Of a DNA stretch of 64,000 bases, positions 8,763 to 28,234 are shown in pieces. This stretch comes from Catellatospora sp. IY07-71. GTDB taxonomy: Bacteria; Actinomycetota; Actinomycetes; Mycobacteriales; Micromonosporaceae. Each line of letters starts with the position of its first letter. The first letter of the stretch is position 1. Below the pieces are notes generated by a model. The model saw nothing but the letters and a program-made list of their open reading frames with translations, was not told the DNA's origin and did no database searches. Location of the stretch: the NCBI RefSeq assembly GCF_018326265.1, contig NZ_AP023360.1:6445001-6509000 (forward strand), in the 5' to 3' direction. The translations under genes were made by a program, and so were the position numbers.

Positions 8763-8783
8763 GGTGCGTGTCCAATCCTCGGG

Positions 8784-10033: not shown

Positions 10034-10037
10034 CGGT

Positions 10038-11610: not shown

Positions 11611-11725
11611 GGAGCGCAGCGACGTTCCGGGTTCTCTCCGGGCGAGGACCCTCGTGCGTCATCACGCCCCGCGGCGTACGACCGGCATTCGGTGCCGCGT
11701 ACGCCGACGACAGCTTGGGAGACAC

Positions 11726-13303: not shown

Positions 13304-13335
13304 CCGCGGCGGACCGGCGCAGCCGGGCACAGGCC

Positions 13336-13369
13336 GGCGGGTCGCCCGGCGCCCCCTGGGCGACCCGCC
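13336..13369 (+). terminator. Terminator-like hairpin after pectate lyase
   Basis: GGCGGGTCGCCC (13336-13347) pairs perfectly with GGGCGACCCGCC (13358-13369). It lies 33 bases after the lyase stop. The following ~100 bases (13390-13460) are AT-rich for this genome and probably carry the promoter of the SGNH gene. Confidence 0.7.
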
Positions 13370-13529
13370 GCTTCCCGCCGCACCGGACGGGCCTTTTTAA
13401 TCAGCCGATCCGTCAACCACGTCGATAGATTCGGATATCTACATATTACGTATTTATTGGCATGGTGGTCCCGGTGGCGGGACGCCCCCGCCGCGTCCCC
13501 CTTCTCGGGAATCGACGGAGGTTCCACAA

Positions 13530-14780
13530 GTGATGATCAAACGTAGGCGTGTCGTGGCGGGGCTGGCCGGTCTCGGCCTGGCCGCGGCGAGCCTGGTCGC
13601 GGCGGCCGGCCCGGCTTCGGGCGGGATCCCGCCGCGGTGGGTGGGGACCTGGGGGACCGCCCTGACCGCGCCGAGCCTGGCCAACACGGGCAGCAGCCTC
13701 AACGGGTTCGCCGACCAGTCGATCCGGCAGATCGTGCGGGTGTCGCTGGGCGGTGAGCAGGTCCGGCTGCGGTTCACCAACGCGTACGGCACCGGCCCGC
13801 TCACGATCGGCCACGCCACCGTCGGCCTGCCCGCCGCGCCGGGCTCGCCGACGCTGCAGGCGGGGTCGGTCCGGGAGGTCACCTTCAACGGCGGGTCGGC
13901 GTCGGCGACCGTGTACAAGGGTGCGGAGGTGCTGTCCGACCCGGTCGACCTGCCGGTGGCGGGCACGTCCGAGCTCGCGGTGACGATCTACCTGCCGACC
14001 CCGACCGGTGCCACCTCCTGGCACTGGACGGCACGGCAGACCTCGTACGTCTACGCCGGGGACCGGGCCGCCGACACCGACGGCACCGGCCAGACGGCTG
14101 CGTACAACCACTTCTACTACCTGGCCGGGGTCGAGGTCTCGACCAAGACCGGCCTGGGCACGGTCGTGGTGCTGGGCGACTCGATCTCCGACGGGTCGGG
14201 CTCGACGCTGGGCGCGAACACCCGCTGGCCGGACTACCTCGCCACGCGGATCAACAGCACCTGGCCCGCTCTCGGCGACCCCGGTGTGATCAACGTGGCC
14301 CTCGCGGGCAACCAGGTCACCAAGGACGGGCTGGCCATCAACAGCCCGGCCCTGGGCAACAGCGCCCTGGCCCGCCTCGACGACGACGTGTTCAACCAGC
14401 CCGGCGTGCGCAGCGTGTTCGTCGAGCTGGGCATCAACGACGTGCACCTGTCCGGCTTCACCGCCGAACAGGTCATCGCCGGGCTCGGCCAGCTCGCGGC
14501 GCAGGCCGAGGCCCACGGGCTGCGCACCGTCGTGGCCACCCTCGGCCCGTTCGAGGGCTACGCGACGTGGACGCCGGAGAAGGAGGCCGTCCGGCAGGCG
14601 GTCAACACGTGGCTGCGCGGCGACACCGGGTTCGACGGGCTGGTCGACTTCGACCAGATCCTGCGCGACCCGGCCAACCCGAGCAAGGTCCTGCCCGCCT
14701 ACGACAGCGGCGACCACATCCACCCCAACGACACCGGCGCCCAGGCCCTGGCCAACGCCGTGCCGCTCTGGCTGCTCTGA
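13530..14780 (+). CDS. Secreted SGNH/GDSL esterase
   Basis: This 416-residue exported hydrolase has an N-terminal signal (RRRVVAGLAGLGLAAASLVAAAG), a beta-rich N-domain starting PPRWVGTWGTALTAP, then an SGNH fold: block I VVVLGDSISDGSG (Ser nucleophile), block II Gly/Asn in ALAGNQ, block III GIND and block V DHIHPND (Asp/His). It is probably an acetyl esterase of pectin or other plant polysaccharide, given the lyase upstream; a lipase role cannot be excluded. GTG 13530 sits 8 bases after GGAGG; ATG 13533 is the alternative. Confidence 0.85.
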   Translation: MMIKRRRVVAGLAGLGLAAASLVAAAGPASGGIPPRWVGTWGTALTAPSLANTGSSLNGFADQSIRQIVRVSLGGEQVRLRFTNAYGTGPLTIGHATVGLPAAPGSPTLQAGSVREVTFNGGSASATVYKGAEVLSDPVDLPVAGTSELAVTIYLPTPTGATSWHWTARQTSYVYAGDRAADTDGTGQTAAYNHFYYLAGVEVSTKTGLGTVVVLGDSISDGSGSTLGANTRWPDYLATRINSTWPALGDPGVINVALAGNQVTKDGLAINSPALGNSALARLDDDVFNQPGVRSVFVELGINDVHLSGFTAEQVIAGLGQLAAQAEAHGLRTVVATLGPFEGYATWTPEKEAVRQAVNTWLRGDTGFDGLVDFDQILRDPANPSKVLPAYDSGDHIHPNDTGAQALANAVPLWLL

Positions 14781-14790
14781 TCGAACACCC

Positions 14791-14889: not shown

Positions 14890-14945
14890 TGCAACAAATC
14901 TGCGAATGCAAATACTTGTTCGAGGAAAGCGCTTACCCGTAGCGT
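14890..14945 (+). promoter_or_regulatory. Promoter with GGAAAGCGCTTACC operator
   Basis: It starts TGCAACAAATCTGC like the pectate lyase promoter and has -35 TTGTTC (14916-14921), an 18-base spacer holding the operator GGAAAGCGCTTACC (14924-14937), and -10 TAGCGT (14940-14945). Predicted transcription start is near 14952, directly before two hairpins. It should drive the sulfotransferase/ABC exporter unit or a small RNA. Confidence 0.68.
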
Positions 14946-14951
14946 GGGCGA

Positions 14952-15024
14952 CGTGGCTCGGTCTCCTGCCCGAGACCGAGAAGTGCAGATGAGGGCGGCC
15001 GGCATGCCGCCCTCATCTTCTTCC
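14952..15024 (+). ncRNA. Candidate small RNA or attenuator leader
   Basis: From the predicted start near 14952 the transcript folds into two perfect hairpins. The first has stem CTCGGTCTC with GAGACCGAG (14957-14980). The second has a 12-bp stem GATGAGGGCGGC with GCCGCCCTCATC (14988-15017) followed by the pyrimidine tail TTCTTCC, which looks like an intrinsic terminator. The sulfotransferase ATG is only 20 bases after the second hairpin and lacks a good ribosome site. The ~70-nt product is either a free small RNA or an attenuating 5' leader. This is inference from sequence only. Confidence 0.5.
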
Positions 15025-15037
15025 CTGGACGGTGTGG

Positions 15038-16087
15038 ATGGCCGAGCTGCGCGCACTGGTGGACCGGAGCAAGCCCTACCCCCTGGCGGTGGCGAGCCCC
15101 GCCGACCTCCGCTGCGAGCCGGTGGCCTCCGTCGATCCCCGGGTCGTGATGACCGATCCGGCATACAGCCTGTACTGCCTGGACCACGACGATCGCCGTG
15201 CCCTGTTCACCAGGACCGGCACCGACCCGGCCCGCGCCCCGTTCTACTTCCTCGCCCAGTACGAGCAGGCCACCGAGGTCGTCGCGCTGTCCTATGACGA
15301 GCTGCACGCCTTGCCGACTCCGGAACCGCGCGGGGTGTTCCTCCACTCCACGGGCCGCTGCGGCTCGACCCTGGTCGCCGCCGCGCTCGCCGGGCCGGGC
15401 GGCCTGGTGGGGGTGTCCGAACCCGACGCGCTCACCCAGCTGGTCGCCCTCGCCCCCCGGCTGGCCGAGGGCGAGCTGCGCGAGCTGGCCCGCAGCTGCG
15501 TACGGGTGCTGTCGCGGGGACGCCCGGTGGTGATCAAGCCGCGCAGCTTCGTCATCGAGCTGGCCGCGCTGCTGCACGAGGAGTGCCCCGCGTTCGCCGC
15601 CGTCTTCCTCTACCGCGACCCGCTGGCCTGGGCGCGTTCCACCGCGCGGGCCTTCGCCGCCTACGACCCGGCACTGGTTACCGACCCGGCGGCGGTGCAG
15701 GACCGGCTCGGCACGCTGATCCCGCTGGTCGCCCGGTGGCGCGGCCGGACCAGGCGGCTGCTGTCGCCCGAGGAGGTGATGGCCTGCCAGTGGGTGTCGC
15801 AGCTGGAACGCGCGCTGGCGCTGCGGCACCGGGGCGTCGACCTGTTCACCGCGACGTACGAGGACCTGCAGGCCGACCCGCACGCCGTGCTCGCGGCGCT
15901 GTTCGCGCACTGCGGGCTGCCCGCCCCGGACGGGCTGGACCCGATCCTGGCCGAGGACGCGCAGGCCGGGACCGCGCTGTCCCGCGCGGCCACGTCCGCC
16001 CGCGACGGGTCCGGCGACGCCGCCCTGTTCGATGAAGCCGCGCTGACCAGTGCCGTGGCCGGGCTGTGGGTGGAGGCGCTGCGGTGA
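15038..16087 (+). CDS. Sulfotransferase-like P-loop protein
   Basis: This 349-residue protein resembles PAPS-dependent sulfotransferases (Sulfotransfer_3 type). It has a 5'-phosphosulfate-binding P-loop HSTGRCGSTLVAAAL near residue 108 and a 3'-phosphate motif FLYRDPLAWARST near 190. It would sulfate a small molecule or glycan. ATG 15038 is preferred over GTG 15032; neither has a strong ribosome site. Its stop overlaps the ABC exporter start as GTGA, so the three plus-strand genes form one unit. Its link to the NRPS product is inferred from position and a shared operator type. Confidence 0.75.
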   Translation: MAELRALVDRSKPYPLAVASPADLRCEPVASVDPRVVMTDPAYSLYCLDHDDRRALFTRTGTDPARAPFYFLAQYEQATEVVALSYDELHALPTPEPRGVFLHSTGRCGSTLVAAALAGPGGLVGVSEPDALTQLVALAPRLAEGELRELARSCVRVLSRGRPVVIKPRSFVIELAALLHEECPAFAAVFLYRDPLAWARSTARAFAAYDPALVTDPAAVQDRLGTLIPLVARWRGRTRRLLSPEEVMACQWVSQLERALALRHRGVDLFTATYEDLQADPHAVLAALFAHCGLPAPDGLDPILAEDAQAGTALSRAATSARDGSGDAALFDEAALTSAVAGLWVEALR

Positions 16088-17820
16088 AGGCGCGGGAGCT
16101 GATCAGCCGCGGTGCCCGGCTGTGCGGTCACATGATCCGGTCCGAGCCCCGGCTGTTCGCGATCTCGCTGGGCGGGGCGTGCCTGGTGGTGGGCCTGTCC
16201 ATCGGCAGCGCGTTCGTGATCGGCGCGGTCGTCGCCGACGTGGTGGCGCCGATGCTCGACCGCGGCCGGGTCGACGCCGGGCTGCTGGCCCTGGCCGCCG
16301 CCGCGCTGCTGGGGGTGAGCGCGCTGAAGGTGCTGGGCATCTTCAGCCGGCGGCTGGGCGCCGTGCACCTGCAGCAGAGCCTGCAGGCGCGGCAGCGCAA
16401 ACAGATCGTGCGCAAGTACCTCAGCCTGCCGCCGGCCTGGCACCGGGACAACCCGACCGGAGCGCTGCTGTCCAACGCGTCGTCGGACGTGGACGCCGCC
16501 GCGTCGCCGGCGGGCAGCCTCGCGTACGCGATCGCGACGGTGTTCCTGCTGGCCGGGGCGCTGACCGCGCTGTTCGCCGTCGACTGGACGCTCGGCCTGG
16601 TCGGCGTGGTGGTCTTCCCGGGGCTGGTCACGGTGTTCGCCGCGTACTCGCGCCTGGTGGCCCCGCGCCACCGGCGCAGCCAGGCGATCCGCGCGCAGGT
16701 CACCGCGCTGGCGCACGAGAGCTTCGACGGCGCGCTGACGGTCAAGGTGATGGGCCGCGAGGAGCATCAGACGGCCCGGTTCGCCGCGCAGGTCGGCGAG
16801 CTGCGCGGCACCCTGGTGTCGATCGGCCGGGCCCGTGCCTGGCACGACCCGGTCATCGACGCGCTACCCCAGTTCGGCACGGTCGCGGTGCTCATCGTGG
16901 GCGCCTGGCGGTGCGAGCAGGGTGCGCTGGGGCTGAGCGAGCTGACCACGGCGGCGTTCCTGTTCGCGCTGCTGGACATGCCGATCCGGGCCATCGGCTG
17001 GCTGCTCGGGGCGCTGCCCCGGGCGGTGGCGGGAGCCGAGCGGGTGGACCGGGTGCTCGCCGCCGCGGACGCGCCGCCGTACGGCACCGTCGAGGTGAGC
17101 GGGCCGGCCGAGCTGCGATTCGCCGGGGTGGGTGTGCGGGGCCTGGACGGCGTGTCGTTCCGGGTGGCGCCCGGCCGGGTGGTCGCGGTGGTCGGCCGGA
17201 CGGGCTCCGGGAAGTCGAGCGTCGCGGCCGCCGCCGCCCGGCTGCTGCCGCCCGAGTCCGGCGCGGTGCTGCTCGGCGGCGTGGACATCCGCGAGCTCAG
17301 CACCGCCGCGTACGCGCGCGCCGTCGCCTACCTGCCGCAGGTGCCGTTCCTGTTCCAGGACAGCGTGCGGGCCAACGTGACGCTGGACCGGCCCGGTCTC
17401 GACGACGACGCGGTGTGGCAGGCGCTGGGCGTGGCGCAGGCCGACGACTTCGTCCGGGCGCTGCCCGACGGGCTGGACACCGCGGTCGGCGAGCGGGGCG
17501 CGGCCCTGTCCGGCGGGCAGCGGCAGCGGCTCGCGCTGGCCCGCGCGCTGGCCGGGCGGCCCCGGCTGCTCGTGCTCGACGACGCCACCAGCGCCGTGGA
17601 CCCGGTGGTGGAGGCGGACATCCTGGCCGGGCTGCGCGCCGCGCACGGCCCGGCGATGCTCGTGGTCGCCACCCGCCGGCCCGCCATCGCGCTGGCCGAC
17701 GAGGTCGTCTACCTGGATCGGGGCCGGGTCGCGGCGCTCGGCACGCATCAGGAGCTGATGGCGGGCGAGCCGGGTTACCGGGAGCTGCTGGCGGCGTACG
17801 ACCGGAGGGTGGCGGCGTGA
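16084..17820 (+). CDS. ABC exporter half-transporter, subunit 1
   Basis: This 578-residue fused membrane-ATPase protein has six predicted membrane helices (about 20-310), Walker A GRTGSGKSS (near 370), signature LSGGQ (near 475) and Walker B LLVLDDATS (near 495). The catalytic Glu after Walker B is Asp, as in the degenerate half of heterodimeric exporters. GTG 16084 overlaps the preceding stop. It pairs with the next gene and likely exports the product of the neighbouring NRPS operon. Confidence 0.92.
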   Translation: MKARELISRGARLCGHMIRSEPRLFAISLGGACLVVGLSIGSAFVIGAVVADVVAPMLDRGRVDAGLLALAAAALLGVSALKVLGIFSRRLGAVHLQQSLQARQRKQIVRKYLSLPPAWHRDNPTGALLSNASSDVDAAASPAGSLAYAIATVFLLAGALTALFAVDWTLGLVGVVVFPGLVTVFAAYSRLVAPRHRRSQAIRAQVTALAHESFDGALTVKVMGREEHQTARFAAQVGELRGTLVSIGRARAWHDPVIDALPQFGTVAVLIVGAWRCEQGALGLSELTTAAFLFALLDMPIRAIGWLLGALPRAVAGAERVDRVLAAADAPPYGTVEVSGPAELRFAGVGVRGLDGVSFRVAPGRVVAVVGRTGSGKSSVAAAAARLLPPESGAVLLGGVDIRELSTAAYARAVAYLPQVPFLFQDSVRANVTLDRPGLDDDAVWQALGVAQADDFVRALPDGLDTAVGERGAALSGGQRQRLALARALAGRPRLLVLDDATSAVDPVVEADILAGLRAAHGPAMLVVATRRPAIALADEVVYLDRGRVAALGTHQELMAGEPGYRELLAAYDRRVAA

Positions 17821-19583
17821 AGGACGGCTCCATGTGGGACACGTTGCGCCGCGCGCTGCGGCTCTCGCCCGAGCTGCGCCGCGGCCTGGTGGTCACGCTG
17901 CTGCTGGCGGTGGGCATGACCGCGGGCCGGGCGGCGGTGCCGGTGGCGGTGCAGCGGGCGATCGACGACGGTCTGCGCGGGCCCGGCGGCCCGGATTTCG
18001 CCGTGGTCGCCGCGATCGGCGCGGCCGGGCTGGCCGTGCTCGCCGTGTCGATGCTGTGCGGGTACGCGATGATGCTGCGCCTGTTCGACGTGAGCGAGAC
18101 CGCGCTGGCGGCGGTGCGGGTGAAGGTGTTCCGGCACATCCACGAGCTGTCGGTGCACCACGTCGGGGCGCAGCGGCGCGGCGCGCTGGTGGCCCGGGCG
18201 ACCTCCGACGTGGACCAGGTCACCTCGTTCCTGCAGTGGAACGGGGTGGTGCTGTTCATCTGCGCCGGGCAGACGCTGGTCACCGGCGCGGTGATGTTCT
18301 TCTACTCGTGGCCGCTGGCGCTGGTGGTGCTCGCGGTGTTCGCGCCGGTCGGGTGGGTGGTGCGCGCCTGCATGCGCAACCTCGCCGCGGCGTACGGGAC
18401 GGTGCGCGAGCGCTCGGCAGAGATGCTCGCGATGGTGTCGGAGAGCGTCACCGGCGCGGACGTGATCCGCTCCTACGACGTCGCCGACCGGGCCGTCGGC
18501 CGGCTGGATCGGGCGGTCGACGCGCACCGGCACGCCTCCCAGCGCGCCTCGCGGCTCACCGTCACCGCGTACTCCGTCGGCGAGCTGGCCACCGGGGTCG
18601 CGCTGGCCGCCACGGCGGTGCTCGGGGTGGTGCTCGGCGTGGCGGGCCGGCTGACGGTCGGCGAGATCGCGGCGTTCCTCTTCCTGGTGGCGCAGTTCGC
18701 GCTGCCCGCGCAGGTGGCCGGGGAGATGCTGAACGGGCTGCAGAACGCCGTCGCCGGGTGGCGGCGGGTGCTGGACGTGCTCGACATCCCGCCGGACGTC
18801 ACCGAGCACGCCGAGGCGGTCGAGCTGCCGGCGGGGCCGGTGCCGGTGTCGCTGCGGGGCGTGGGGTTCACCTATCCGGGCACGGCCGAGCCGGTGCTGC
18901 GCGAGGTGGACCTGGACATCGCGGCGGGCAGCCGGGTCGCGGTGGTGGGCCGGACGGGTGCCGGCAAGACCACGCTGGCCAAGCTCGTGGCCCGGCTGGC
19001 CGACCCGTCGTCCGGCCGGATCCTGCTGGCCGGGGTGCCCCTGGACCGGGTACGCCTGAGCAGCCTGCGCGAGCGGGTGATCCTCGTGCCGCAGGAGGGT
19101 TTCCTGTTCCGGGGGACGCTCGCCGACAACATCCGGTTCGGGCGCCCGCTCGACCACGACGAGGTGGCAGCCGTCCTGCGCGAACTGGGCCTGCTGGATT
19201 GGGCGGCCCGCCTGCCGGAGGGATTGGACACGGTCGTCGGCGAGCGCGGGGAGAGCCTGAGCGTGGGCGAGCGGCAGTTCGTGGCGCTGGCCCGTGCCCA
19301 TGCGGCGGGCGCGGACCTGCTGATCCTGGACGAGGCGACAAGTGCCGTCGACCCGGCGGCCGAGGTGCGGCTGCGCACCGCGATGGCGCAGGTGGCGTTC
19401 GGGCGGACCACGATCACCGTCGCGCACCGGCTGGCCACCGCACGCGAGGCGGACGAGGTGATCGTGATCGACGGGGGCCGGGCGGTGCAGCGCGGCCACC
19501 ACGACGAACTCGTCGCGGTGGCCGGTTCGGCGTACGCGAAGCTGCACGAGGCCTGGCTCGCCGGGGAGCGGGCGCTGGCCTGA
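17817..19583 (+). CDS. ABC exporter half-transporter, subunit 2
   Basis: This 588-residue partner has six predicted helices, Walker A GRTGAGKTT (near 377), Walker B LLILDEATS with the normal Glu (near 501), but a non-canonical signature LSVGE (near 481) instead of LSGGQ. Combined with subunit 1, this predicts one complete and one degenerate ATP site, as in TM287/288-type heterodimers. GTG 17817 overlaps the subunit-1 stop as GTGA; an internal ATG (MWDTLRR) five codons on is possible. The stop is 15 bases from the convergent glycosyltransferase stop. Confidence 0.92.
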   Translation: MKDGSMWDTLRRALRLSPELRRGLVVTLLLAVGMTAGRAAVPVAVQRAIDDGLRGPGGPDFAVVAAIGAAGLAVLAVSMLCGYAMMLRLFDVSETALAAVRVKVFRHIHELSVHHVGAQRRGALVARATSDVDQVTSFLQWNGVVLFICAGQTLVTGAVMFFYSWPLALVVLAVFAPVGWVVRACMRNLAAAYGTVRERSAEMLAMVSESVTGADVIRSYDVADRAVGRLDRAVDAHRHASQRASRLTVTAYSVGELATGVALAATAVLGVVLGVAGRLTVGEIAAFLFLVAQFALPAQVAGEMLNGLQNAVAGWRRVLDVLDIPPDVTEHAEAVELPAGPVPVSLRGVGFTYPGTAEPVLREVDLDIAAGSRVAVVGRTGAGKTTLAKLVARLADPSSGRILLAGVPLDRVRLSSLRERVILVPQEGFLFRGTLADNIRFGRPLDHDEVAAVLRELGLLDWAARLPEGLDTVVGERGESLSVGERQFVALARAHAAGADLLILDEATSAVDPAAEVRLRTAMAQVAFGRTTITVAHRLATAREADEVIVIDGGRAVQRGHHDELVAVAGSAYAKLHEAWLAGERALA

Positions 19584-19598
19584 GGCCGGCCGCGCCGG

Positions 19599-20774
19599 TC
19601 AGGTCAGGCAGTCCTCGATGATGTCGGCGGCCCGCGCCGCGCCGCCCGCGGTGGCGACCGCACGGCGCAGGTGGTCCACGCCGTCGCCGATGGCCGGGTC
19701 CTTGACCATCAGCTCGACGGTGTCCTTCAGCGCGCCGGGGTCGGTCAGGCCGGCCGGGAGCCGTACGCCGAGGCTCAGCTCCTCCACCCGCAGCGCGTTG
19801 GCCTCCTGCTCCAGGGTCTGCGGCGCGGCGAGCACCGGCACGCCGTGGCTCATCGCCTCCATCACCCCGCCCATGCCCGCATGGCAGATCAGCGCGGTGG
19901 CGTGGGCGAGCACGTCCAGCTGCGGCACGAAACGGTGCAGCTCGACGTTGCGGGGCAGGCGGCCGAGCGCGTCCAGGTCGATCCGCTCCCCCACGGCGAG
20001 CACCACGTGCCAGTCGCTGCCCGCGAACGCGTCCGCGCAGTAGCGGTAGAAGTCGGGCCGGGCGTTGTAGATCGTGCCGAGGGTGACCAGGATGACGTCC
20101 CGGTCCCGGGGCGGCCGCCAGCGCAGCGGCGTACGCCGCAGACACGGCCCGACGAACCGGTAGCCGGGGCCGAACCGCTCCCCCGCGTACTGGAACGCGC
20201 GTGGGTAGAACGCCAGGTGCGCCTCGGGTTGCGGGCTGAGGAACTCCTCCGGTGCCAGGGCCGGGCAGTGCGTGCCGAGGAAACGCTCCAGTTTGGCCAG
20301 ATAGGTGTGCAGGACCGGGTCGGTCGGGTCGAACGCGTTCAGCGCCTGCGCCATCGACCAGTGCTCGTTGGAGACGAGCATCGGCCACAGCTGGACCGAC
20401 GGCAGCTCCATCCGGGCGGCCAGGACCCGCCCGGCGAACGCCATCCGGTCGAAGACGACCAGGTCCGGCGGGTCGTCCCGGTAGACGGGGGCGAGCTGCG
20501 CGTACGCGGCCTCGGCCTCCTCCAGGAAGCTGAGCAGGCTGTGGCTGATGTAGCCGGACCGGTCGGGCGCGCGCACCGTCGGGTCGCTGTCCGGCGGGCG
20601 CAGCGACCGGTACGCGTGCACGGCCGCCCCCGCCTCGGCCAGCGCCGCACGGCGGCTCTCGGTGGTGCCGTAGGTGACCCGGTGTCCGCGGCGCGTCAGC
20701 TCCTGGACCACGGCCAGGGTGGGGAACACGTGCCCGATGGCGGGGATGTTGACGAACGCGATGTGCCTACCCAC
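19599..20774 (-). CDS. MGT-family glycosyltransferase (GT1)
   Basis: This 391-residue GT-B enzyme transfers a sugar from a nucleotide donor to a small acceptor. It has the N-terminal IPAIGHVFPTLAVVQEL acceptor-domain start and the donor signature HAGMGGVMEAMSHGVPVLAAP (near 290-310), like macrolide glycosyltransferases. GTG 20774 overlaps the condensation-domain gene by 8 bases. It is last in the five-gene NRPS operon, so it probably decorates the acyl-peptide product. No dedicated deoxysugar genes are nearby, which suggests a common UDP- or GDP-sugar. Confidence 0.92.
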   Translation of the reverse strand: MGRHIAFVNIPAIGHVFPTLAVVQELTRRGHRVTYGTTESRRAALAEAGAAVHAYRSLRPPDSDPTVRAPDRSGYISHSLLSFLEEAEAAYAQLAPVYRDDPPDLVVFDRMAFAGRVLAARMELPSVQLWPMLVSNEHWSMAQALNAFDPTDPVLHTYLAKLERFLGTHCPALAPEEFLSPQPEAHLAFYPRAFQYAGERFGPGYRFVGPCLRRTPLRWRPPRDRDVILVTLGTIYNARPDFYRYCADAFAGSDWHVVLAVGERIDLDALGRLPRNVELHRFVPQLDVLAHATALICHAGMGGVMEAMSHGVPVLAAPQTLEQEANALRVEELSLGVRLPAGLTDPGALKDTVELMVKDPAIGDGVDHLRRAVATAGGAARAADIIEDCLT

Positions 20775-22083
20775 GGAGCGCCCCCGTCTCCGAGAGGCGG
20801 TCCCCCGGCCGGGCGACCGCGGCGGACAGGATCTGCTCGTAGCGTTCGGCCAGTTCCGCGACGGTGTCGGGCCGGAACAGCGCGGTGTCGTAGCGGATCC
20901 CGGCGCGCAGTCCCGCCTCGTCCAGCCGCCAGATGTCGAACACGAGGTCGTGCAGCACCTTGGCGTGCCCGTGCGGGAAGCCCTCGATCTCCAGCGGGCC
21001 CAGGTGCGAGGCGAGCACCGGGTTGTCGTTGCGCATGCTGAACACGACGTCGAACAGCTGGGTGCGGCCGGGATCGCGGGGCACGCCCAGCGTCGAAATT
21101 ATCTTCCCGAGGGGCACGGACTGGCGCTGGAGCCCCCCGATGACACCGGTCCGGGCACGCCGGAGCAGGTCGGTGAAGGTCGGGTCGCCGGACAGGTCGG
21201 CGCGCAGCGCGAGCGTGTTCGCGAACAGCCCGACCACCGGCTCGAACTCGGCGCGGACCCGCCCGGCGACCGGCGTGCCCACGCAGAAGCCGTCCTGGCC
21301 GCTGCGCTCGCGCAGCAGCACCTGCAGCGCCGCGAGCAGCACCATGAACGGGGTGCAGCGGGTCCGCCGGGACAGCTCGATCACCTGGGCGGCCAGGTCC
21401 GGGCCCATCTGGTGGATGTGCTCGGCGCTGTGCGCGGACTTCTCGGCCGGCCGGGGCGAGTCGGTGGGCAGCTCCAGCGACGGGGCGCCGGCCAGCCGCT
21501 CGCACCAGTACGCCAGGTCGGCGGCCTGGTCCTGCGCCGCCTGCCACTGCGCGAAGTCGCCGTACTGCAGCGTCAGCTCCGGCAGGTCGGGTTTGGTCCC
21601 GTCGAGGGCGGCGAGGTAGGCGGCGCGGATCTCGCGGCCGACGATGCGCAGCGACGCGCCGTCGGCCAGCAGGTGGTGCATGGTGAAGCAGAAGACGTGG
21701 TGGTCGTCGTCCAACCGCAGCAGGCACGAGCCGACCAGCGGGTCGGCGGTGAGGTCCAGCAATCGGTGGGTACGGGCGCGCAGCAGCTCCCCGGCCCGGG
21801 CGTCCCGCTCGCCGCCGGGCAGCTCACGCAGGTCCACCAGCTCCGTGTCGATCCCGGCGGGCGGCATGACGACCTGCACCGGCTCGCCGTCGCGGAGCAC
21901 GAAGCCGGTGCGCAGGCTCTCGTGCCGGTCCACGACGGTGTCCACCGCCGCCCGCCAGGCGGCCACGTCCAGCGGGCCGCGCAGGCGCCAGTTGAGCACC
22001 AGGATCGGCGACGCGTCGCCGGGGTACGCGGTGCAGAGGTACCAGAAGCGCTGTTGCAGCGCCGACAGCGGCAGATGTCTCAC
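20767..22083 (-). CDS. Free-standing NRPS condensation domain
   Basis: This 438-residue single condensation domain begins LPLSALQQRFWYL (C1-like) and has the active-site motif HHLLADG near 135 (HHxxxDG intact), YGDFAQWQ (C4-like) and VGLFANTLALR (C5-like). It could form an amide or ester between carrier-bound intermediates or release the chain. GTG 22083 overlaps the carrier protein stop as GTGA. Together with the C domain of the 955-residue NRPS the operon has two intact condensation sites but only one amino-acid A domain and no thioesterase. Confidence 0.92.
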   Translation of the reverse strand: MRHLPLSALQQRFWYLCTAYPGDASPILVLNWRLRGPLDVAAWRAAVDTVVDRHESLRTGFVLRDGEPVQVVMPPAGIDTELVDLRELPGGERDARAGELLRARTHRLLDLTADPLVGSCLLRLDDDHHVFCFTMHHLLADGASLRIVGREIRAAYLAALDGTKPDLPELTLQYGDFAQWQAAQDQAADLAYWCERLAGAPSLELPTDSPRPAEKSAHSAEHIHQMGPDLAAQVIELSRRTRCTPFMVLLAALQVLLRERSGQDGFCVGTPVAGRVRAEFEPVVGLFANTLALRADLSGDPTFTDLLRRARTGVIGGLQRQSVPLGKIISTLGVPRDPGRTQLFDVVFSMRNDNPVLASHLGPLEIEGFPHGHAKVLHDLVFDIWRLDEAGLRAGIRYDTALFRPDTVAELAERYEQILSAAVARPGDRLSETGALRG

Positions 22084-22319
22084 AGCCGTTCCTCCACCAT
22101 CCGGGTGATCGCGTCGAGGGTGTCCGCGCCCGGCCCGTCGCCGAGGTCCACCTCGACGCCGAACTCCAGGTCGATGGCGTCGATCAGCCGCAGCGCGCCG
22201 AGCGAGTCCAGGCCCAGGGCCCGCAGCGAGCCCCCGGCCAGCGCCTGCTCGGCGGTGACCGTCCCGGTGGTGGCGTCGTGCACCAGCGCGGCCAGGCGGC
22301 CGCTCAGCCCCGCGCTCAC
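22080..22319 (-). CDS. Acyl carrier protein
   Basis: This 79-residue phosphopantetheinyl carrier has its attachment site in GLDSLGAL (Ser39). The DSL form and the acidic helix following it are more like acyl carrier proteins than peptidyl carriers (GGHS). It probably receives the acyl group activated by the AMP ligase two genes upstream. It overlaps both neighbours by 4 bases (GTGA at 22316-22319 and at 22080-22083), indicating tight coupling and stoichiometric synthesis. Confidence 0.9.
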   Translation of the reverse strand: MSAGLSGRLAALVHDATTGTVTAEQALAGGSLRALGLDSLGALRLIDAIDLEFGVEVDLGDGPGADTLDAITRMVEERL

Positions 22320-25183
22320 GGCTGCTCCCGCAGGTACTGCGCGATCTCGGCGATGGTGGGCGTGTCGAAGAAGACGTCCAGCGGCACGTCGCGGCCGAGC
22401 TGCTGGGTGATCCGCACGCTGATCCGGGTGATGGTCAGCGAGTGACCGCCCAGGTCGAACAGGTCCTCGTCGTCGCCGACGTCCTCGACGGACAGCACCT
22501 CCTGCCAGATCGCGCGCAGCGTGCCGAGCAGCTCGTCGTCACCGGCGGAGCCCTCGCCGCGGACGGGCGCGGGCGAGCGGGACAGGACCGGCTCGGGCAG
22601 CGCGGCGCGGTCGAGCTTGCCGCTCGGGGTGAGCGGCAGGCGGTCCAGCACCGTCCAGGACGTCGGCACGGTGGCTGCGGGCAAGCGCTGGCCGAGGTGG
22701 CGGCGCAGCTCGGCCGCATCGGGGGCGTTGCCGCGAGGCACCAGGTAACCGGCCAGCTCGCCGCCGTGCAGCGCGACGGCCGCCTGGGCGACGCCGGGGT
22801 GCTCGCGCAGGTGGGCCTCGATCTCCTCCAGCTCCACCCGGTGCCCGCGTATCTTGACCTGGCCGTCGTCCCGGCCGCCGTAGACGAGCCGCCCGTCGGC
22901 CGACCACCGGCACCGGTCCCCGGTGCGGTAGAGCCGGCCGGGTCCGAACGGGTCGGCTGTGAACCGCTCGGCGGTGAGGTCCGGGCGGCGCAGGTAGCCG
23001 TCGGCCACGCCGTCGCCGCCGATGCACAGCTCGCCCCAGACCCCGGCGGGCAGCGGCCGCCCGGCCGGGTCCAGCACGTAGGTGCGGGTGTTGGCGATCG
23101 GGCGGCCGATCGCGACCGTGTCCGGCTGTTCGGGGATCTCGTCGGCGGTGGACCAGATGGTGGTCTCGGTCGGGCCGTACACGTTGATCAGCCGGGCGGT
23201 GCGGGCGCGCAGCCGCCGGGCCAGGTCCAGCGGCAGGGCCTCGCCGCCGGTGAGCGCGGTGACCGCCGGGCCGCCGAAGCCCGCCTCCAGCAGGATCTGC
23301 CAGCCCGACGGGGTCGCCTGCACGTGGGTCACGCCCTCGCGGGCGATCAGCGCAGCGACGGCGCGGCCCTCCAGCGCGCTGAGGTCGCTGGCGATCACCA
23401 GCCGACCGCCGGTGACCAGCGGCAGGAACAGCTCCAGGCCGGAGATGTCGAAGGACAGCGGAGTCAGGCCGAGCCACCGGTCCCCGGGGCGGCTGCCGAC
23501 CGTCTCGGCCATGCCGAGCAGCAGGTTGGCCAGCGCGGAGTGCGGGACCACGACGCCCTTGGGCCGCCCGGTGGTGCCCGAGGTGTACATGACGTACGCC
23601 GTCCCCGCCGGGACCGCGCCGCCGGGACGCGCCTGCGGGACGGTGTCCAGGTCGTCGAGGATCAGCGCCGGGTCGGCGTCGGCGAGGATCAGCTCCTGCC
23701 TGGCCTGCGGGTAGGACGGGTCGACGGGCACGTACGCCGCGCCCGCGCGCAGCACCGCGAGCATCGCGACCAGCGCCCGCCAGCCGCGCGGCATGCGGAC
23801 CGCGACCAGCGCGCCCTCCCCGGGCAGCCGCGCGGCCAGTTCGGTCACGGCGCGGTCGAGGTCGGCGTAGCTGAGGCGCACGTCGCCGTCGACGACCGCC
23901 GTCTCGTCCGGGTGCAGCCCGGTCTGCGTGGCCAGCAGGCGGACCAGGCTCTCCCGCCGGGGGCGGGCGGTGTCGTTCCAGCGGTGCAGCACGGTGTCGG
24001 CCTCGGCGGCGGGCATGATCGGCAGCGTCGCGACGTCGGCGTCCGGGTCGGCCGCCACGGCGGTGAGCACCGTGCGCAGGTGCTCGCCGATCCGCCGCGC
24101 CGACGCCACGGGCAGCCGGGCCGGGTCGTGCTGGAGGCTCGCGGTGAGCCCGTCCGGGCCGTCGACGAACTGCAGGTGCAGCGCGTTGCGGGCGCTGCCG
24201 CCGAACAGCGCCCACTGCACCTCGGCGGCCAGGCCGGGGAAGTCCGGCGCGGGGCCGCGCCGCCGGTAGCCCACCGACACCGCGGTCAGCGACGGCGCGG
24301 CCCGCAGCCCGCCGCTGACCTGCGCCAGCGGCACGGCCCGATGCCGGTACAGGTCACGCAGCCGCGACCGCAGCGCCGTGGCGTAGTCCCGGAACCGCCC
24401 CATGGCCATGGCGACGGTGACGGGCAGCTCGTTGACGTGCAGGCCGATGTGCCGCGCGGTGTGCTCGGTGCGGGTGGACAGCCCGATGGCGACCGGCAGG
24501 CCGGTGTTGCCGTAGCGGGCCAGCAGCACGTGGATCGCGGCGAGCAGCACCTCGAACCGGGTGAGGCCCGCGACGTCGACCGTGGGCAGCTCGATCTCCA
24601 CGGCGTGACCGGGCTCCGCAGCGGTCGGGACACCGGTCAGGTCCGGCAGCACCACCTCGCCGGGGCTGGTGGCCTGGCCGGCCCAGTAGGCGCGGGCGGC
24701 GGCGACCGCCTGTTCGTCCGTCACGCCGTCCGTGGCGGCGGGCAGCGGGGCGAGTTCGGTCCCGGCGTACGCGGCGGCCAGGTCGGCCAGCAACAGGTCC
24801 TTGGACATGCCGTCGAAGACCAGGTGGTGGGCGGTGCACAGGAGCAGGTGCCGGGTGGGCGCCTCCCGCAGCAGCAGGAACCGGGCCAGCGGCCCGCGCG
24901 CCAGGTCGTACGGGCGCTCGATCTCCTCGCGCACCCGCTGCTCGCTGTACGGCGCGTCGGTCAGCGTGACCTTCTCCGCGGCGGGGACCAGCTCCGGCAG
25001 GTCACCCGCGAGGGTCACCGCGCTCGACAGCACCGGATGCCGGGCGACGACCGCGGCACACGCCTCCCCCAGGGCGTGCCGGTCGAGGTCGCCGTCGAGC
25101 CGGACCCCGAGCGCCATGTGGTACGCGGTGCCCGCGACCTGTGCCTGCTCGGTGAACCACACGCCGTGCATGGTCGGATTCAC
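22316..25183 (-). CDS. NRPS module C-A-T, predicted glycine-activating
   Basis: This 955-residue one-module synthetase has a condensation domain with HHLVFDG (near 118), an adenylation domain with A3 YTSGTTGRPKG (near 530), A5 NVYGPTETT, A7 YRTGD, A8 RGHRVELEEIE and A10 PSGKLDR, and a C-terminal thiolation domain LGGHSLT (near 910). Manual alignment to GrsA gives the pocket code DILQLGVIWK, one residue from the classic glycine code DILQLGLIWK. GTG 25183 follows GGAGGTGA and overlaps the ligase stop. There is no thioesterase or epimerase. Likely role: joining the ACP-bound acyl group to glycine. Confidence 0.93.
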   Translation of the reverse strand: MNPTMHGVWFTEQAQVAGTAYHMALGVRLDGDLDRHALGEACAAVVARHPVLSSAVTLAGDLPELVPAAEKVTLTDAPYSEQRVREEIERPYDLARGPLARFLLLREAPTRHLLLCTAHHLVFDGMSKDLLLADLAAAYAGTELAPLPAATDGVTDEQAVAAARAYWAGQATSPGEVVLPDLTGVPTAAEPGHAVEIELPTVDVAGLTRFEVLLAAIHVLLARYGNTGLPVAIGLSTRTEHTARHIGLHVNELPVTVAMAMGRFRDYATALRSRLRDLYRHRAVPLAQVSGGLRAAPSLTAVSVGYRRRGPAPDFPGLAAEVQWALFGGSARNALHLQFVDGPDGLTASLQHDPARLPVASARRIGEHLRTVLTAVAADPDADVATLPIMPAAEADTVLHRWNDTARPRRESLVRLLATQTGLHPDETAVVDGDVRLSYADLDRAVTELAARLPGEGALVAVRMPRGWRALVAMLAVLRAGAAYVPVDPSYPQARQELILADADPALILDDLDTVPQARPGGAVPAGTAYVMYTSGTTGRPKGVVVPHSALANLLLGMAETVGSRPGDRWLGLTPLSFDISGLELFLPLVTGGRLVIASDLSALEGRAVAALIAREGVTHVQATPSGWQILLEAGFGGPAVTALTGGEALPLDLARRLRARTARLINVYGPTETTIWSTADEIPEQPDTVAIGRPIANTRTYVLDPAGRPLPAGVWGELCIGGDGVADGYLRRPDLTAERFTADPFGPGRLYRTGDRCRWSADGRLVYGGRDDGQVKIRGHRVELEEIEAHLREHPGVAQAAVALHGGELAGYLVPRGNAPDAAELRRHLGQRLPAATVPTSWTVLDRLPLTPSGKLDRAALPEPVLSRSPAPVRGEGSAGDDELLGTLRAIWQEVLSVEDVGDDEDLFDLGGHSLTITRISVRITQQLGRDVPLDVFFDTPTIAEIAQYLREQP

Positions 25184-26646
25184 GCGTCACCTCCGGTGCC
25201 GGCGGGGAACAGCGCCACCAGCTGTCGTTTTAGGACCTTGCCCGCGTCGTTGCGCGGGAGTTCGTCGAGTACCAGCAGATCGCCGGGCAGCTGGTGGTCG
25301 GCGAGCCGCGCGGCGAGGAAGGCCCGGACTGCGGGCAGGTCGAGCCGGGCCGCGTCCGGCCGGGGCACGACCGCGGCGGCGAGCCGGGTGCCGAGCACCG
25401 GATGCGGCACGCCGAGCACGGCCGCGGCGGCGACGCCCGGGTGCTCGTGCAGCGCGTTCTCGACCTCCAGCGTGGAGATCTTGTAGGCGCCGGATTTGAC
25501 CACGTCGCCGTCCCGGTCGGACAGGTAGAGGAAGCCCTCGTGCAGGCGGCCCAGGTCGCCCATGCGCACCCAGCCGTCCTGGAAGGTGTCCCGGGTGGCG
25601 CGCTCGTCGCCGAGGTAGCGGCGGGCGAACGGCGAGCGCAGCCATACGTGGCCGGTCTCGCCGTCGGGCAGGGGGCTGCCGTCGGCGTCGGTGATGCGTA
25701 CCGCGCCACCGGTGACGCGGCCGACGGCGTCCGGACGCCGGGGGTCGAAGATCGTGGTGGTGTGCGCGGGCGCGGCCTCGGTGGACGTGTAGTGGTTGAC
25801 GATCGCGGCGTTGGGGAAGGCGCGGGCCAGCCGCAGCGCGACGGCGGGCGGCAGCGGCGCGGCGGTCGAGCCGACCAGGTGTACGCCGCCCAGGTCGACG
25901 CCGTCCAGCGCGCCGGAGTCGAGCAGCTCGATCGCCGTCGCGGGGACCAGGAACACGGTGCCCGCCTCGGGCAGGCGCGCGGCGAAGCGGCGCGGAGTGA
26001 AGCGGGGCAGGGTCAGCGCCGCGGGCCGGGCGGTGAGCGCGTTGACGAGCATCGTCTGCGCGGCGTTCGTGCCGATCGGAAAGGCGTGCAGGAACCGCCG
26101 GGAGTGGGCCAGCGGCATCCGGTTCGGGTGAGCGGGCGCGCCCGAGGTGAGGTTGGCGTGGGTGGCGGCGACCGCCTTGGGCAGGCCGGACGTGCCGGAG
26201 GTGAACAGGATCTGGGCGACGTCGGCCGGGCGGGACAGGTCCACGTCGTCGGGCGTCCCGGCCGCGACCAGCGCGTCGACGTCGTCCCGGCCGTTGATGA
26301 CCAGCTGCGCGCCGCACGCGGCCAGCAGCTGCGCCAGCCGCGCCGGGGGCAGCTGGTCGGGCAGCGGCACGGCGATCCCGCCGGCCAGCTGCACGCCGCA
26401 GTAGGCGACGGCGAAGGCGGTCCAGTCGCGGCCCGCGAAGGCCAGCCCGACGGCGGTGCCCGGCGTGACGCCCCGGTCGCGCAGCGCCCCGGCGAGGGCG
26501 GCGGACCCGTCGGCCCACTGCGCGAAGGTGAGCGTGTCGACGCCCGCGACCTCGATGGCGATCTGGTCCGGGTGCCGGGCACGCCGTGCGGCCAGCAAGC
26601 CGGGCACGGTGCACGGTCGCGGGGGGTGCTCGCCGATCCCGGGCAT
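25180..26646 (-). CDS. Acyl-AMP ligase (class I adenylate-forming)
   Basis: This 488-residue AMP-binding enzyme has ATP-loop LFTSGTSGLPKAV (near 145), the A5-like HYTSTEA, the hinge and C-domain KSGAYKISTLEVENALHEHPG, and the catalytic lysine in NDAGKVLKRQL at the end. The motifs fit acyl-CoA or acyl-ACP ligases better than amino-acid A domains. ATG 26646 has AGGAGA upstream; the frame is open for 24 more codons but lacks a ribosome site. It is the first gene of the NRPS operon, so it probably activates the fatty or aryl acid starter and loads the small ACP. Confidence 0.88.
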   Translation of the reverse strand: MPGIGEHPPRPCTVPGLLAARRARHPDQIAIEVAGVDTLTFAQWADGSAALAGALRDRGVTPGTAVGLAFAGRDWTAFAVAYCGVQLAGGIAVPLPDQLPPARLAQLLAACGAQLVINGRDDVDALVAAGTPDDVDLSRPADVAQILFTSGTSGLPKAVAATHANLTSGAPAHPNRMPLAHSRRFLHAFPIGTNAAQTMLVNALTARPAALTLPRFTPRRFAARLPEAGTVFLVPATAIELLDSGALDGVDLGGVHLVGSTAAPLPPAVALRLARAFPNAAIVNHYTSTEAAPAHTTTIFDPRRPDAVGRVTGGAVRITDADGSPLPDGETGHVWLRSPFARRYLGDERATRDTFQDGWVRMGDLGRLHEGFLYLSDRDGDVVKSGAYKISTLEVENALHEHPGVAAAAVLGVPHPVLGTRLAAAVVPRPDAARLDLPAVRAFLAARLADHQLPGDLLVLDELPRNDAGKVLKRQLVALFPAGTGGDA

Positions 26647-26752
26647 GGGAGAACGTCTCCTAACACGACGGAGAAGCGGGGATCGGCATCTCGCCCGCAC
26701 ATCGACACGAGTCTGCATCGGGAGCCGCCGGACGGGGCATCGTCCGAACGGA

Positions 26753-26785
26753 GGAAAGCGCTTTCCGTCACGCGCAGCCTACGCT
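26753..26785. promoter_or_regulatory. Divergent NRPS promoter: GGAAAGCGCTTTCC operator
   Basis: GGAAAGCGCTTTCC (26753-26766) is a perfect 14-bp palindrome between the divergent acyl-AMP ligase and condensation-like genes. TACGCT (26780-26785) is a -10 hexamer six bases before ATG 26792, the spacing of leaderless actinobacterial promoters, placing the operator over the -35 region of the rightward promoter. The same operator type occurs at 11591 and 14924. Confidence 0.75.
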
Positions 26786-26791
26786 GTCGTG

Positions 26792-28234
26792 ATGTCCATC
26801 CACGGTCATCACATCGATGCCGCGCCCGGCGGCTTCGTCCAGCGGTGGCGGGCGACGCAGGTGAGCGCCCCGTTCGCCGGGCCGCCAGACCCCGGCGCCC
26901 CGCTCACCTGGGGCCAGCGCGCACTGTGGATCGCCATCCGCCGGCACGGCGCCGCGCAGGCCATGTTCAGCCTGCGCCGGGTCGTCGCCGCACCCCGCCG
27001 CACCCCGCTCGGCGTACCCGCGGCGCTGCGCGCGGTCGGCGCCCTCGTCGCCCGGCACGGGTCGCTGCGCACCCGCGTCCGCGCGGTGGACGGCGAGCTG
27101 CGCCAGGTCGTCGCCGCGCAGGGCGAGCACCCGGTGCTGGTCGTGCCGATCGGCGACGCCACCGCCGACGACGGCGCGGCGCTCGCCCAGCAGCTCGCCG
27201 CCGACCTCGCCGCGACCCCGTTCGACCACGCCGAGGAGTGGCCCCAGCGTTTCGCGCTGCTGGTCACGGGCGAGCGCGTGTGCCAGGTCGTCGTCGTGCT
27301 GAGCCACACCACCGTCGACTTCCGCGCCGCCGAGCTGGTGCTGCGCGACCTGCGCCTGCTGCTGGTACGCGGCAGCGTGCCCGCCCCCGCCCCGCCCCAG
27401 TCGGCCGACATCGCCCGCCTCGAACAGAGCGAGCGGCACCGGCGGCGCTGCGAGCGCGCCGTACGCCACTGGATCGACAGCACGCGGCGGCTGCCCGCCG
27501 AGACGCTGCCGGCCGTCGGACCCGCCCTGGTCCCCCGCTTCCGCCGGTGCGTGCTCACCTCACGAGCGGCCGGCCCGGCGGCCCGCGTCATCGCCCGTCG
27601 CGCGCAGGTGTCCAGCTCGACCGTGCTGCTCGCGGCCGTCGCCGGGGTGATCACCGCCTGGTCGGGCGAGCCGGTCTGCGGGGTGTACACGATGGTCAAC
27701 AACAGGTCGGCCGACGACTACCGCGAGGCGATCGCGAAGCTCAACCAGCTCGGCCTGCTGGTGATCGACCTGGGCGACCGGCCGTCGTTCACCGCGGCGC
27801 TGCCCCGGGTGTGGCACGCCGCCGTCGAGGCGTACCGGCACGCGTACTACGACCCGGCGGAGATGGCGCGGGCGCACGAGGCCGCCGGGCTGCCCTACGC
27901 CACCGGCGTCAACCGGCACTGCTACTTCAACGACATCCGGCTCGCGCCCGAGTCCGAGACCGCCGGCGACACCGCCGACACCATGGACCTGCGTCGTGCC
28001 ATGGCGGACACGGTCTTCGCGCCGGCCGAGGAGCTGGACACCTTCACCTGGCTGATGCGGGTCGAGGTGATCGACGCGCCGGGCGCGATCGGGCTGGCCG
28101 TCACCGGGGACACCGCCCACCTGCCCCCGCCCGTGGCCGAGCGGTTCCTGCGCGACCTGGAACGGCTGCTGGTCGACGCGGCCCTCGGCGACCTGCCGTG
28201 GCCCTGGACCGCACCGGCGGACGCCGTCGGCTGA
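26792..28234 (+). CDS. Condensation-like acyltransferase with altered motif
   Basis: This 480-residue protein has the chloramphenicol-acetyltransferase-like fold signs of condensation domains: an N-terminal substrate-entry segment PLTWGQRALWIAIRR and the active-site equivalent SHTTVDF (near 170) in place of HHxxxDG. The catalytic second His and the Asp remain; the first His is Ser and the Gly is Phe. There is no carrier or A domain attached. Its promoter is shared with the NRPS operon, so it may acylate or esterify the product, or transfer a second acyl chain as PapA/WES-type enzymes do. Function is not established. Confidence 0.75.
   Translation: MSIHGHHIDAAPGGFVQRWRATQVSAPFAGPPDPGAPLTWGQRALWIAIRRHGAAQAMFSLRRVVAAPRRTPLGVPAALRAVGALVARHGSLRTRVRAVDGELRQVVAAQGEHPVLVVPIGDATADDGAALAQQLAADLAATPFDHAEEWPQRFALLVTGERVCQVVVVLSHTTVDFRAAELVLRDLRLLLVRGSVPAPAPPQSADIARLEQSERHRRRCERAVRHWIDSTRRLPAETLPAVGPALVPRFRRCVLTSRAAGPAARVIARRAQVSSSTVLLAAVAGVITAWSGEPVCGVYTMVNNRSADDYREAIAKLNQLGLLVIDLGDRPSFTAALPRVWHAAVEAYRHAYYDPAEMARAHEAAGLPYATGVNRHCYFNDIRLAPESETAGDTADTMDLRRAMADTVFAPAEELDTFTWLMRVEVIDAPGAIGLAVTGDTAHLPPPVAERFLRDLERLLVDAALGDLPWPWTAPADAVG

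What the first reader, a model, noticed from the sequence alone, without database searches (positions are those of the whole stretch)
14890..28234. Compact acyl-glycine NRPS/glycosyl/sulfo locus with its own exporter
Seen: one operon encodes an acyl-AMP ligase, a C-A-T module, a free ACP (DSL motif), a free C domain and an MGT-type glycosyltransferase, with 4- to 8-base overlaps throughout; a convergent operon encodes a sulfotransferase-like protein and a heterodimeric ABC exporter; a condensation-like protein is divergent. Known: the pocket code DILQLGVIWK is one residue from the glycine code. Inference: the locus makes and exports a glycosylated, perhaps sulfated, N-acyl-glycine or a small lipopeptide. 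It has no thioesterase and only one amino-acid A domain for two or three condensation-type proteins, a combination I do not recognise.
Basis: partly seen in the sequence, partly recalled or inferred. Interest (0 to 1): 0.82.

Follow-up and report, generated by a model that had tools for sequence, protein, structure and literature searches.

The report
One-module lipo-glycine assembly locus
A conserved soil-bacterium gene cluster probably joins a fatty or other acid to glycine, decorates the product with a sugar and sulfate, and pumps it out; its parts are known, but this stand-alone combination looks unusual.

Summary
In a Catellatospora genome, nine intact genes lie as described: sulfotransferase and two ABC half-exporters (+), convergent with acyl-AMP ligase, C-A-T, ACP, free C domain and MGT glycosyltransferase (-), and a divergent condensation-like gene; overlaps are 4 or 8 bases. 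The pocket code DILQLGVIWK is identical in the nine relatives compared, and its first eight residues equal a published glycine-predicted code (PMC5466765, passage). All nine genes share one contig in 8 of 200 family genomes: 7 of 11 Catellatospora and one other genus. Two more carry parts on separate contigs. dN/dS is below 0.6 throughout. The parts are not unique: ligase, ACP, glycine-code A domain, free C domain and an SH-type condensation-like protein recur together in other genera and families, mostly beside larger NRPSs. I read the locus as a lipo-initiation cassette that stands alone, with its own tailoring and exporter. Product, acyl group, glycosylation, sulfation and release are inferred. 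New variant of a known kind.

The parts
13530..14780 (+). GDSL/SGNH hydrolase with an N-terminal signal-like stretch (by eye); probable accessory of the locus
   Evidence: Pfam Lipase_GDSL_2 4e-21. Upstream of SulfoT in 5 Catellatospora relatives (L047, L048, L052, L053, L054) and partly in L088; not in G009. 3 of the 4 GDSL matches in the genome (E 1e-20) lie within about 6.5 kb of its 3 MGT matches (E 1e-60).
15038..16087 (+). sulfotransferase
   Evidence: Pfam Sulfotransfer_3 over cut-off; AF2 pLDDT 92.9; the 23 Foldseek hits at E 1e-3 are sulfotransferases or sulfotransferase-fold enzymes such as retinol dehydratase; STGRCGST in 9 of 12 aligned relatives, SVGRCGST or SIGRCGST in the other 3, SEPD in all 12
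16084..17820 (+). ABC half-exporter 1 (degenerate nucleotide site)
   Evidence: Pfam; LDDATSA and no H-loop His
17817..19583 (+). ABC half-exporter 2 (catalytic site)
   Evidence: Pfam; LDEATSA and TVAHR
19599..20774 (-). MGT-type glycosyltransferase
   Evidence: NCBIfam TIGR01426, 353 bits over cut-off 260
20767..22083 (-). free-standing C domain (Cfree), HHLLADG
   Evidence: Pfam Condensation 3.8e-82; best PDB relatives Txo2 and Txo1; HHxxxDG kept in the relatives shown
22080..22319 (-). free-standing acyl carrier protein, GLDSL
   Evidence: Pfam PP-binding 5.6e-6 over cut-off; DSL in 14 of 14 aligned rows, two of them the same gene
22316..25183 (-). C-A-T module; A-domain code DILQLGVIWK (glycine)
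   Evidence: Pfam; HHLVFDG, LGGHSL and code
25180..26646 (-). acyl-AMP/CoA-type ligase (AAL)
   Evidence: Pfam AMP-binding 4.4e-50; nearest PDB chains FadD5 and feruloyl-CoA synthetase
26647..26791 (.). 145-base divergent intergenic region, presumably holding the two promoters
   Evidence: gene boundaries; a sigma-70-type scan found no site
26792..28234 (+). condensation-like protein (Cdiv), SHTTVDF in place of HHxxxDG
   Evidence: Pfam Condensation 2.9e-14; weak model (pLDDT 48), Foldseek best SgcC5 3e-13; SHxxxD in 45 of 45 rows shown

Best explanation
The locus is a small self-contained lipo-NRPS gene cluster. Inferred steps: the acyl-AMP ligase activates a carboxylic acid and loads it on the free ACP; the A domain loads glycine on the T domain; the C domain of C-A-T joins them to acyl-glycyl-T; the free C domain releases it without a thioesterase by passing acyl-glycine to a soluble amine or alcohol (as SgcC5 and VibH are recalled to do), or joins a second unit; Cdiv, which keeps the second motif His and the Asp, is an accessory acyltransferase or binding partner of the acyl-ACP/C-A-T pair. 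MGT adds a sugar, the sulfotransferase a sulfate, the heterodimeric ABC pair exports the product, and the secreted GDSL hydrolase may trim it outside. Shown: gene content, intact motifs, glycine-type code, conserved linkage, purifying selection. Not shown: every chemical step.
For: Gene content and domains. Code DILQLGVIWK in 10 of 10 compared clusters of the nine-gene type or its Rhizocola version, and in L064, L065 and L164; first eight residues equal NcmB. All nine genes on one contig in 8 of 200 family genomes; 8 of 11 Catellatospora genomes hold the C-A-T at 77% or more. dN/dS 0.06-0.55. Of 14 distant acyl-ligase loci fetched (of 22 listed), 11 have the ACP, 10 the Cdiv homologue and 11 an A domain DILQLG[V/M][I/V]WK close by: the cassette tends to travel as a set. 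The nearest other AMP-binding genes in the own genome are about 95 kb away. FAAL:ACP:C-domain initiation with ABC transporters is described for daptomycin-type clusters (PMC9113097, abstract and passages). Sulfotransferase fold.
Against: The ligase is closest to acyl-CoA synthetases among solved structures, so loading of ACP is assumed. MGT is absent from the Rhizocola version. In Allorhizocola the nearest Cdiv homologue (59%) has no other locus gene within the 16 kb fetched, and Rhizocola also has a lone Cdiv (56%) (L057, L060). Rhizocola has a second set Cdiv-sulfotransferase-ABC1-ABC2 with no NRPS gene in the 15 kb fetched before the contig end (L059). Cdiv lacks the first His and the Gly of the C motif. 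In 13 of 14 distant loci other NRPS proteins lie beside the cassette, so stand-alone release by the free C domain has little precedent there. G009 has no GDSL upstream of its cluster.
Confidence: 0.6

Rival explanations
1. The cassette is only the first stage: it hands acyl-glycine in trans to an NRPS coded elsewhere in the genome, so the product is a larger lipopeptide.
For: In 13 of the 14 distant loci fetched the same parts sit beside further NRPS proteins, often with other codes such as DFTKIGHVGK; likewise L065 and L171. The own genome has 65 AMP-binding places, several in reading frames over 1000 aa.
Against: The nearest other AMP-binding genes in the own genome are about 95 kb away, and tblastn found no second C-A-T or Cfree in the relatives' stretches of the nine-gene type, L046-L055. 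It has its own exporter and tailoring genes, kept in order. L164 is another compact set.
Confidence: 0.2
2. The product is an envelope glycolipid (acyl-glycine lipid flipped by an MsbA-like ABC pair), not a secreted metabolite.
For: Both half-transporters score best with the MsbA model, though far below its cut-off (288 and 355 of 602 bits); kept in 8 of 11 genomes of the genus with low dN/dS.
Against: Absent from 3 of 11 Catellatospora genomes; scattered in the family; heterodimeric exporters with one degenerate site are common drug or metabolite exporters (general knowledge).
Confidence: 0.12
3. MGT is a self-protection enzyme, not a tailoring enzyme: it inactivates the compound (or another one) inside the cell and the secreted GDSL hydrolase reverses a masking group outside.
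For: The MGT family includes macrolide-inactivating enzymes; 3 of 4 GDSL matches lie within about 6.5 kb of the genome's 3 MGT matches.
Against: The macrolide-inactivating models are missed by far (272.7 of 700 and 250.6 of 700 bits). GDSL enzymes are esterases, not glycosidases (general knowledge). G009 has MGT without a nearby GDSL in this cluster.
Confidence: 0.2
4. The sulfotransferase activates a hydroxyl for elimination, as in CurM, and the product is an alkene rather than a sulfate.
For: CurM and the olefin-synthase sulfotransferase domain are among the nearest structures.
Against: CurM-type chemistry pairs the sulfotransferase with a thioesterase (recalled); none was listed here. Tyrosylprotein sulfotransferases rank as high and Teg12 also matches.
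Confidence: 0.08

Closest known systems
FAAL:ACP:C-III lipo-initiation of daptomycin-type lipopeptides (PMC9113097, abstract and passages)
   Same: free acyl ligase, free ACP and a C domain on the first module that joins an acyl group to the first residue; ABC transporters in the cluster
   Different: one amino-acid module only, no CAT-CATTe termination, two extra free condensation-type proteins, sugar and sulfate enzymes; the ligase resembles acyl-CoA synthetases
SgcC5-type free-standing condensation enzymes (C-1027)
   Same: stand-alone C domains; SgcC5 forms ester and amide bonds (PMC10212144, passage) and is the best structural hit of Cdiv (weak model)
   Different: Cdiv has SHTTVDF instead of HHxxxDG; the free C domain is nearer to modular teixobactin C domains
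Paralogous cluster in the same genome (L063)
   Same: acyl ligase, carrier, three C domains, C-A-T, MGT, GDSL, ABC pair
   Different: ligase-T-C fused in one 1014-aa protein, code DMPHVGLVWK, no sulfotransferase match in the 20 kb fetched, a 361-aa protein without Pfam match
Nocamycin NcmB C-A-T module
   Same: A-domain pocket DILQLGVI, predicted for glycine (PMC5466765, passage)
   Different: tetramic-acid pathway with a Dieckmann cyclase (same passage)

Membership tests
Daptomycin-type FAAL:ACP:C-III lipopeptide cluster | acyl-AMP ligase and free-standing ACP | tested here: met
   FAAL rather than FACL character not shown
Daptomycin-type FAAL:ACP:C-III lipopeptide cluster | specialised starter C domain on the first module | tested here: inconclusive
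   C of C-A-T keeps its motif but its nearest PDB sequence is Txo2; the CDA first C domain scores only 20.6 bits
Daptomycin-type FAAL:ACP:C-III lipopeptide cluster | multi-module elongation with CAT-CATTe termination | tested here: not met
   one module and no thioesterase in the nine proteins; nearest other AMP-binding genes about 95 kb away
Glycine-specific NRPS module | A-domain specificity code of glycine | tested here: met
   DILQLGVIWK; DILQLGVI in NcmB, DILQLGMIWK for Gly domains with MOX (PMC12283262, passage); activity not tested
Free-standing active C domain (SgcC5-like): Cfree | HHxxxDG motif | tested here: met
   HHLLADG
Free-standing active C domain (SgcC5-like): Cdiv | HHxxxDG motif | tested here: not met
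   SHTTVDF; second His and Asp kept in 45 of 45 rows shown, first His in none; some rows are the same gene fetched twice
MGT glycosyltransferase (TIGR01426) | score over curated cut-off | tested here: met
   353 vs 260 bits
Macrolide-inactivating MGT (NF033129) | score over curated cut-off | tested here: not met
   272.7 vs 700 bits
PAPS sulfotransferase | fold and 5'-phosphosulfate loop | tested here: met
   fold; profile; loop motif read by eye
PAPS sulfotransferase | sulfate transfer activity | not testable with these tools
   needs enzyme assay
Heterodimeric ABC exporter | two TMD-NBD halves, one degenerate catalytic site | tested here: met

The most novel reading that the evidence does not exclude
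The locus shows the smallest free-living form of a portable glycine lipo-initiation cassette (acyl ligase, ACP, glycine C-A-T, free C, and an SH-type condensation-like partner) that elsewhere accompanies larger NRPSs. On its own it makes a thioesterase-free, glycosylated and sulfated N-acyl-glycine conjugate, with the free C domain as the release enzyme and the SH-type protein as a new bacterial class of condensation-fold acyltransferase.
Probability: 0.22. Interest if true: 0.62.

Novelty: new variant of a known kind. Interest (0 to 1): 0.45.

Why it matters
A one-module lipo-NRPS with its own exporter in about 13 kb is a small, testable system for how acyl chains are joined to the first amino acid and released without a thioesterase. 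I found no assigned function for the SH-type condensation-like family that travels with it, and its frequent partnership with a glycine-code A domain in several genera makes that function directly testable. A sugar- and sulfate-bearing N-acyl-glycine from such a cluster did not turn up in the open-access searches made here (listings only).

Tried and rejected
Of the 11 family genomes (of 200) with a sulfotransferase at 49% or more, eight hold both operons complete on one contig. G109 and G019 carry the halves on separate contigs, with other genes next to the exporter (both) or after MGT (G019), so linkage there is unresolved. Rhizocola (G042) has the NRPS operon convergent with an ABC pair on one contig, without MGT between them; whether a sulfotransferase gene follows is hidden by the contig end. 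A second Rhizocola set (L059) has Cdiv, sulfotransferase and ABC pair at a contig end with no NRPS gene seen.

Glycine code from literature: the exact recalled string DILQLGLIWK with 'glycine' gave 0 papers; the shorter string gave two, of which I read passages.

Congocidine-type pyrrolamide clusters were thought of from memory only and not tested. Promoter and terminator scans were uninformative. Of the 67 sulfotransferase-relative loci L094-L161 other than L098, tblastn saw C-A-T or Cfree homologues in 3 and MGT homologues in 6 (many loci are short). Literature: searches showed no description of this cluster in their listings; most subscription journals are not held, and only four papers were opened (passages).

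Gene boundaries in fetched loci come from my own simple caller (on), trained on window genes, so starts are approximate and some genes may be missed or misplaced (in L055 it put one long minus-strand call across AAL and Cdiv; tblastn was used there instead). C-T and A-T splits were read from blastp segments, not from Pfam.
Full report
Setting. The window lies in an 8.6-Mb genome in one contig. Its nearest relatives by this locus are Catellatospora species: the sulfotransferase is 91% identical in C. bangladeshensis and 75-79% in five other Catellatospora records.

The observation. Nine intact genes occupy 15038-28234: sulfotransferase, ABC1, ABC2 on +; acyl ligase (AAL), C-A-T, ACP, free C domain (Cfree), MGT on -, transcribed towards them; and the divergent condensation-like gene Cdiv on +. 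Overlaps are 4 or 8 bases. Domains were confirmed with Pfam and NCBIfam. I add the GDSL hydrolase gene at 13530-14780.

Conservation. Of 200 genomes of the family (own included), 14 have a sulfotransferase match at 1e-15 and 11 of these are at 49% identity or more. Of the 11 Catellatospora genomes, 8 hold the C-A-T at 77% or more; the other three (G118, G125, G133) have only copies near 50% and no sulfotransferase match. All nine genes lie on one contig in G000, G051, G071, G087, G016, G100, G129 and G009, the last a different genus. G109 and G019 carry the parts on different contigs with other genes beside them; in G019 the ligase was not seen and the nearest Cdiv homologue has no other locus gene within 16 kb. 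In G129 about 7 kb of other genes sit between ABC2 and MGT, yet both halves remain. Rhizocola (G042) has AAL, C-A-T, ACP and Cfree convergent with ABC2-ABC1 on one contig, without an MGT between them (its only MGT match at 1e-60 is elsewhere); there the Cdiv beside AAL is only 42% identical. Rhizocola also has a second Cdiv-sulfotransferase-ABC pair at a contig end without an NRPS gene in the stretch fetched (L059). dN/dS (Nei-Gojobori, my script) is 0.06-0.55 in every comparison made with seven relatives; genes not covered by a fetched stretch were left out (GDSL in two, AAL and Cdiv in one).

Specificity. The A-domain code is DILQLGVIWK in the window and in L046-L048, L051-L055, L075 and L166, except that L049 and L050 hold no C-A-T; it is also DILQLGVIWK in L064, L065 and L164. 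L171 (DIVQVGGVYK) and the paralogue group L063, L068, L070, L072, L079 (DMPHxGLVWK) differ. NcmB of nocamycin has pocket DILQLGVI, predicted to activate glycine in accord with the structure (PMC5466765, passage); DILQLGMIWK is reported for glycine domains with MOX (PMC12283262, passage). Glycine is therefore well supported by sequence, untested by assay.

Enzyme integrity. The C domain of C-A-T has HHLVFDG and the T domain LGGHSL. Cfree has HHLLADG, ACP DSL, ABC1 a degenerate site and ABC2 a catalytic one. The sulfotransferase model is confident (pLDDT 92.9) and matches tyrosylprotein sulfotransferases, CurM, mycobacterial sulfotransferases and Teg12, all at low sequence identity and TM-scores of 0.5 or less (profile); its first ~95 residues form an added beta-rich stretch in the model. 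The MGT passes the MGT subfamily cut-off but not the macrolide-inactivating models.

Cdiv. Pfam calls it Condensation weakly (2.9e-14). Its motif is SHTTVDF. In the 45 best-scoring rows (the script's cap; 35% identity or more) the second His and the Asp are always kept, the first His is always Ser and the Gly is never present (some rows are the same gene fetched twice). In 19 rows with an L/I/M-T/S-W-G/A-Q start in a wider set, His and Asp are kept in all 19, the first position is Ser, Thr or Cys, and 2 have the Gly. A fungal C subtype (LCL-A) with SHXXXDXX(T/S) is described and said to occur only in fungi (PMC10212144, passage); Cdiv resembles that motif in bacteria, but I did not test kinship. 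Keeping the second His and the Asp suggests that the site is still used (inference).

The cassette elsewhere. L164 (G009) has AAL-C-A-T-ACP-Cdiv-Cfree in one run, without an MGT or sulfotransferase match beside it; L171 has Cdiv-ACP-C-A-T-AAL beside a C-A-T-TE-MFS fusion (code DFTKIGHVGK) and a tandem Cdiv protein; L064 has only Cdiv and a C-A-T. A class-wide search for the ligase (394 genomes, 1e-120) found 14 genomes: the own one, 11 of family f19 and 2 of f21 (unnamed), at 50-60%. I fetched 14 of the 22 places listed outside the own genome: 11 have an ACP homologue, 10 a Cdiv homologue, 11 an A domain with DILQLG[V/M][I/V]WK, and 13 further NRPS proteins; in 8 the C-A-T is split into C-T and A-T proteins. 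L183 and L185 have a fused ligase type, L184 a ligase fused to C-A; these three lack the ACP and Cdiv. L182 is compact, like the window, but its code could not be read. So the parts form a set that usually lies beside larger NRPSs. The Catellatospora locus is that set standing alone with tailoring genes and an exporter.

Paralogue. At 4.80-4.82 Mb the same genome has an ABC pair, a 361-aa unknown, Cfree (46%), MGT (52%), GDSL, a fused AAL-T-C protein and C-A-T (48%), without a sulfotransferase match. It too has three C domains for one amino-acid A domain, so that ratio is a property of the type, not an accident of the window.

Reading. Initiation by ligase, ACP and first-module C domain has a precedent in daptomycin-type clusters (PMC9113097, abstract and passages). 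What is unusual is the lack of later modules and of a thioesterase, and the two extra condensation-type proteins. The likeliest use of Cfree is release onto a soluble partner, as recalled for SgcC5, which forms ester and amide bonds (PMC10212144, passage); that of Cdiv is unknown. Sugar and sulfate on the product are inferred from linkage alone. I rate the finding a sound, conserved, probably undescribed variant of a known kind; the searches behind 'undescribed' are listed under Tried and rejected and cover an open-access library only.

Noticed in passing
window 13451-14782 and L063 8527-9858: 1332 bases are 97.7% identical between two distant clusters of the genome, covering the whole GDSL gene, while the Catellatospora copies compared have diverged (about 79-85% DNA); looks like recent gene conversion or duplication. 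Both C. bangladeshensis contigs end next to where this gene should be.
   Followed up: partly
G000:C1 near 4.81, 6.46 and 8.57 Mb: The genome's three MGT matches (E at most 1e-60) each have a GDSL hydrolase of one subfamily within about 6.5 kb; the fourth GDSL match is elsewhere. G016 (3 of 4 GDSL matches) and G118 (2 of 3) show the same pairing.
   Followed up: partly
L066-L067 (8.54-8.58 Mb of the same genome): A third MGT/GDSL region with acyl ligases and, by eye, ketosynthase- and dehydrogenase-like genes; similar MGT/GDSL/ligase order in L071, L080, L081 and L082.
   Followed up: no
L171 6967-12531 and 12672-15533: A 1854-aa protein with C-A-T-TE and a Major Facilitator domain fused at the end, and a 953-aa tandem of two Cdiv-like domains.
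   Followed up: partly
L174-L180, L187: C-T proteins without an A domain (by blastp segments) beside separate A-T proteins of glycine-like code DILQLGVVWK; who loads the C-T carrier is unclear.
   Followed up: no
L048 about 7692-14255: About 7 kb between ABC2 and MGT in G129; one gene has an HGGEP stretch that by eye suggests a radical-SAM maturase.
   Followed up: no
window 40367-50061: By eye from gene starts only, a rhamnose-utilisation and sugar ABC-transport region.
   Followed up: no
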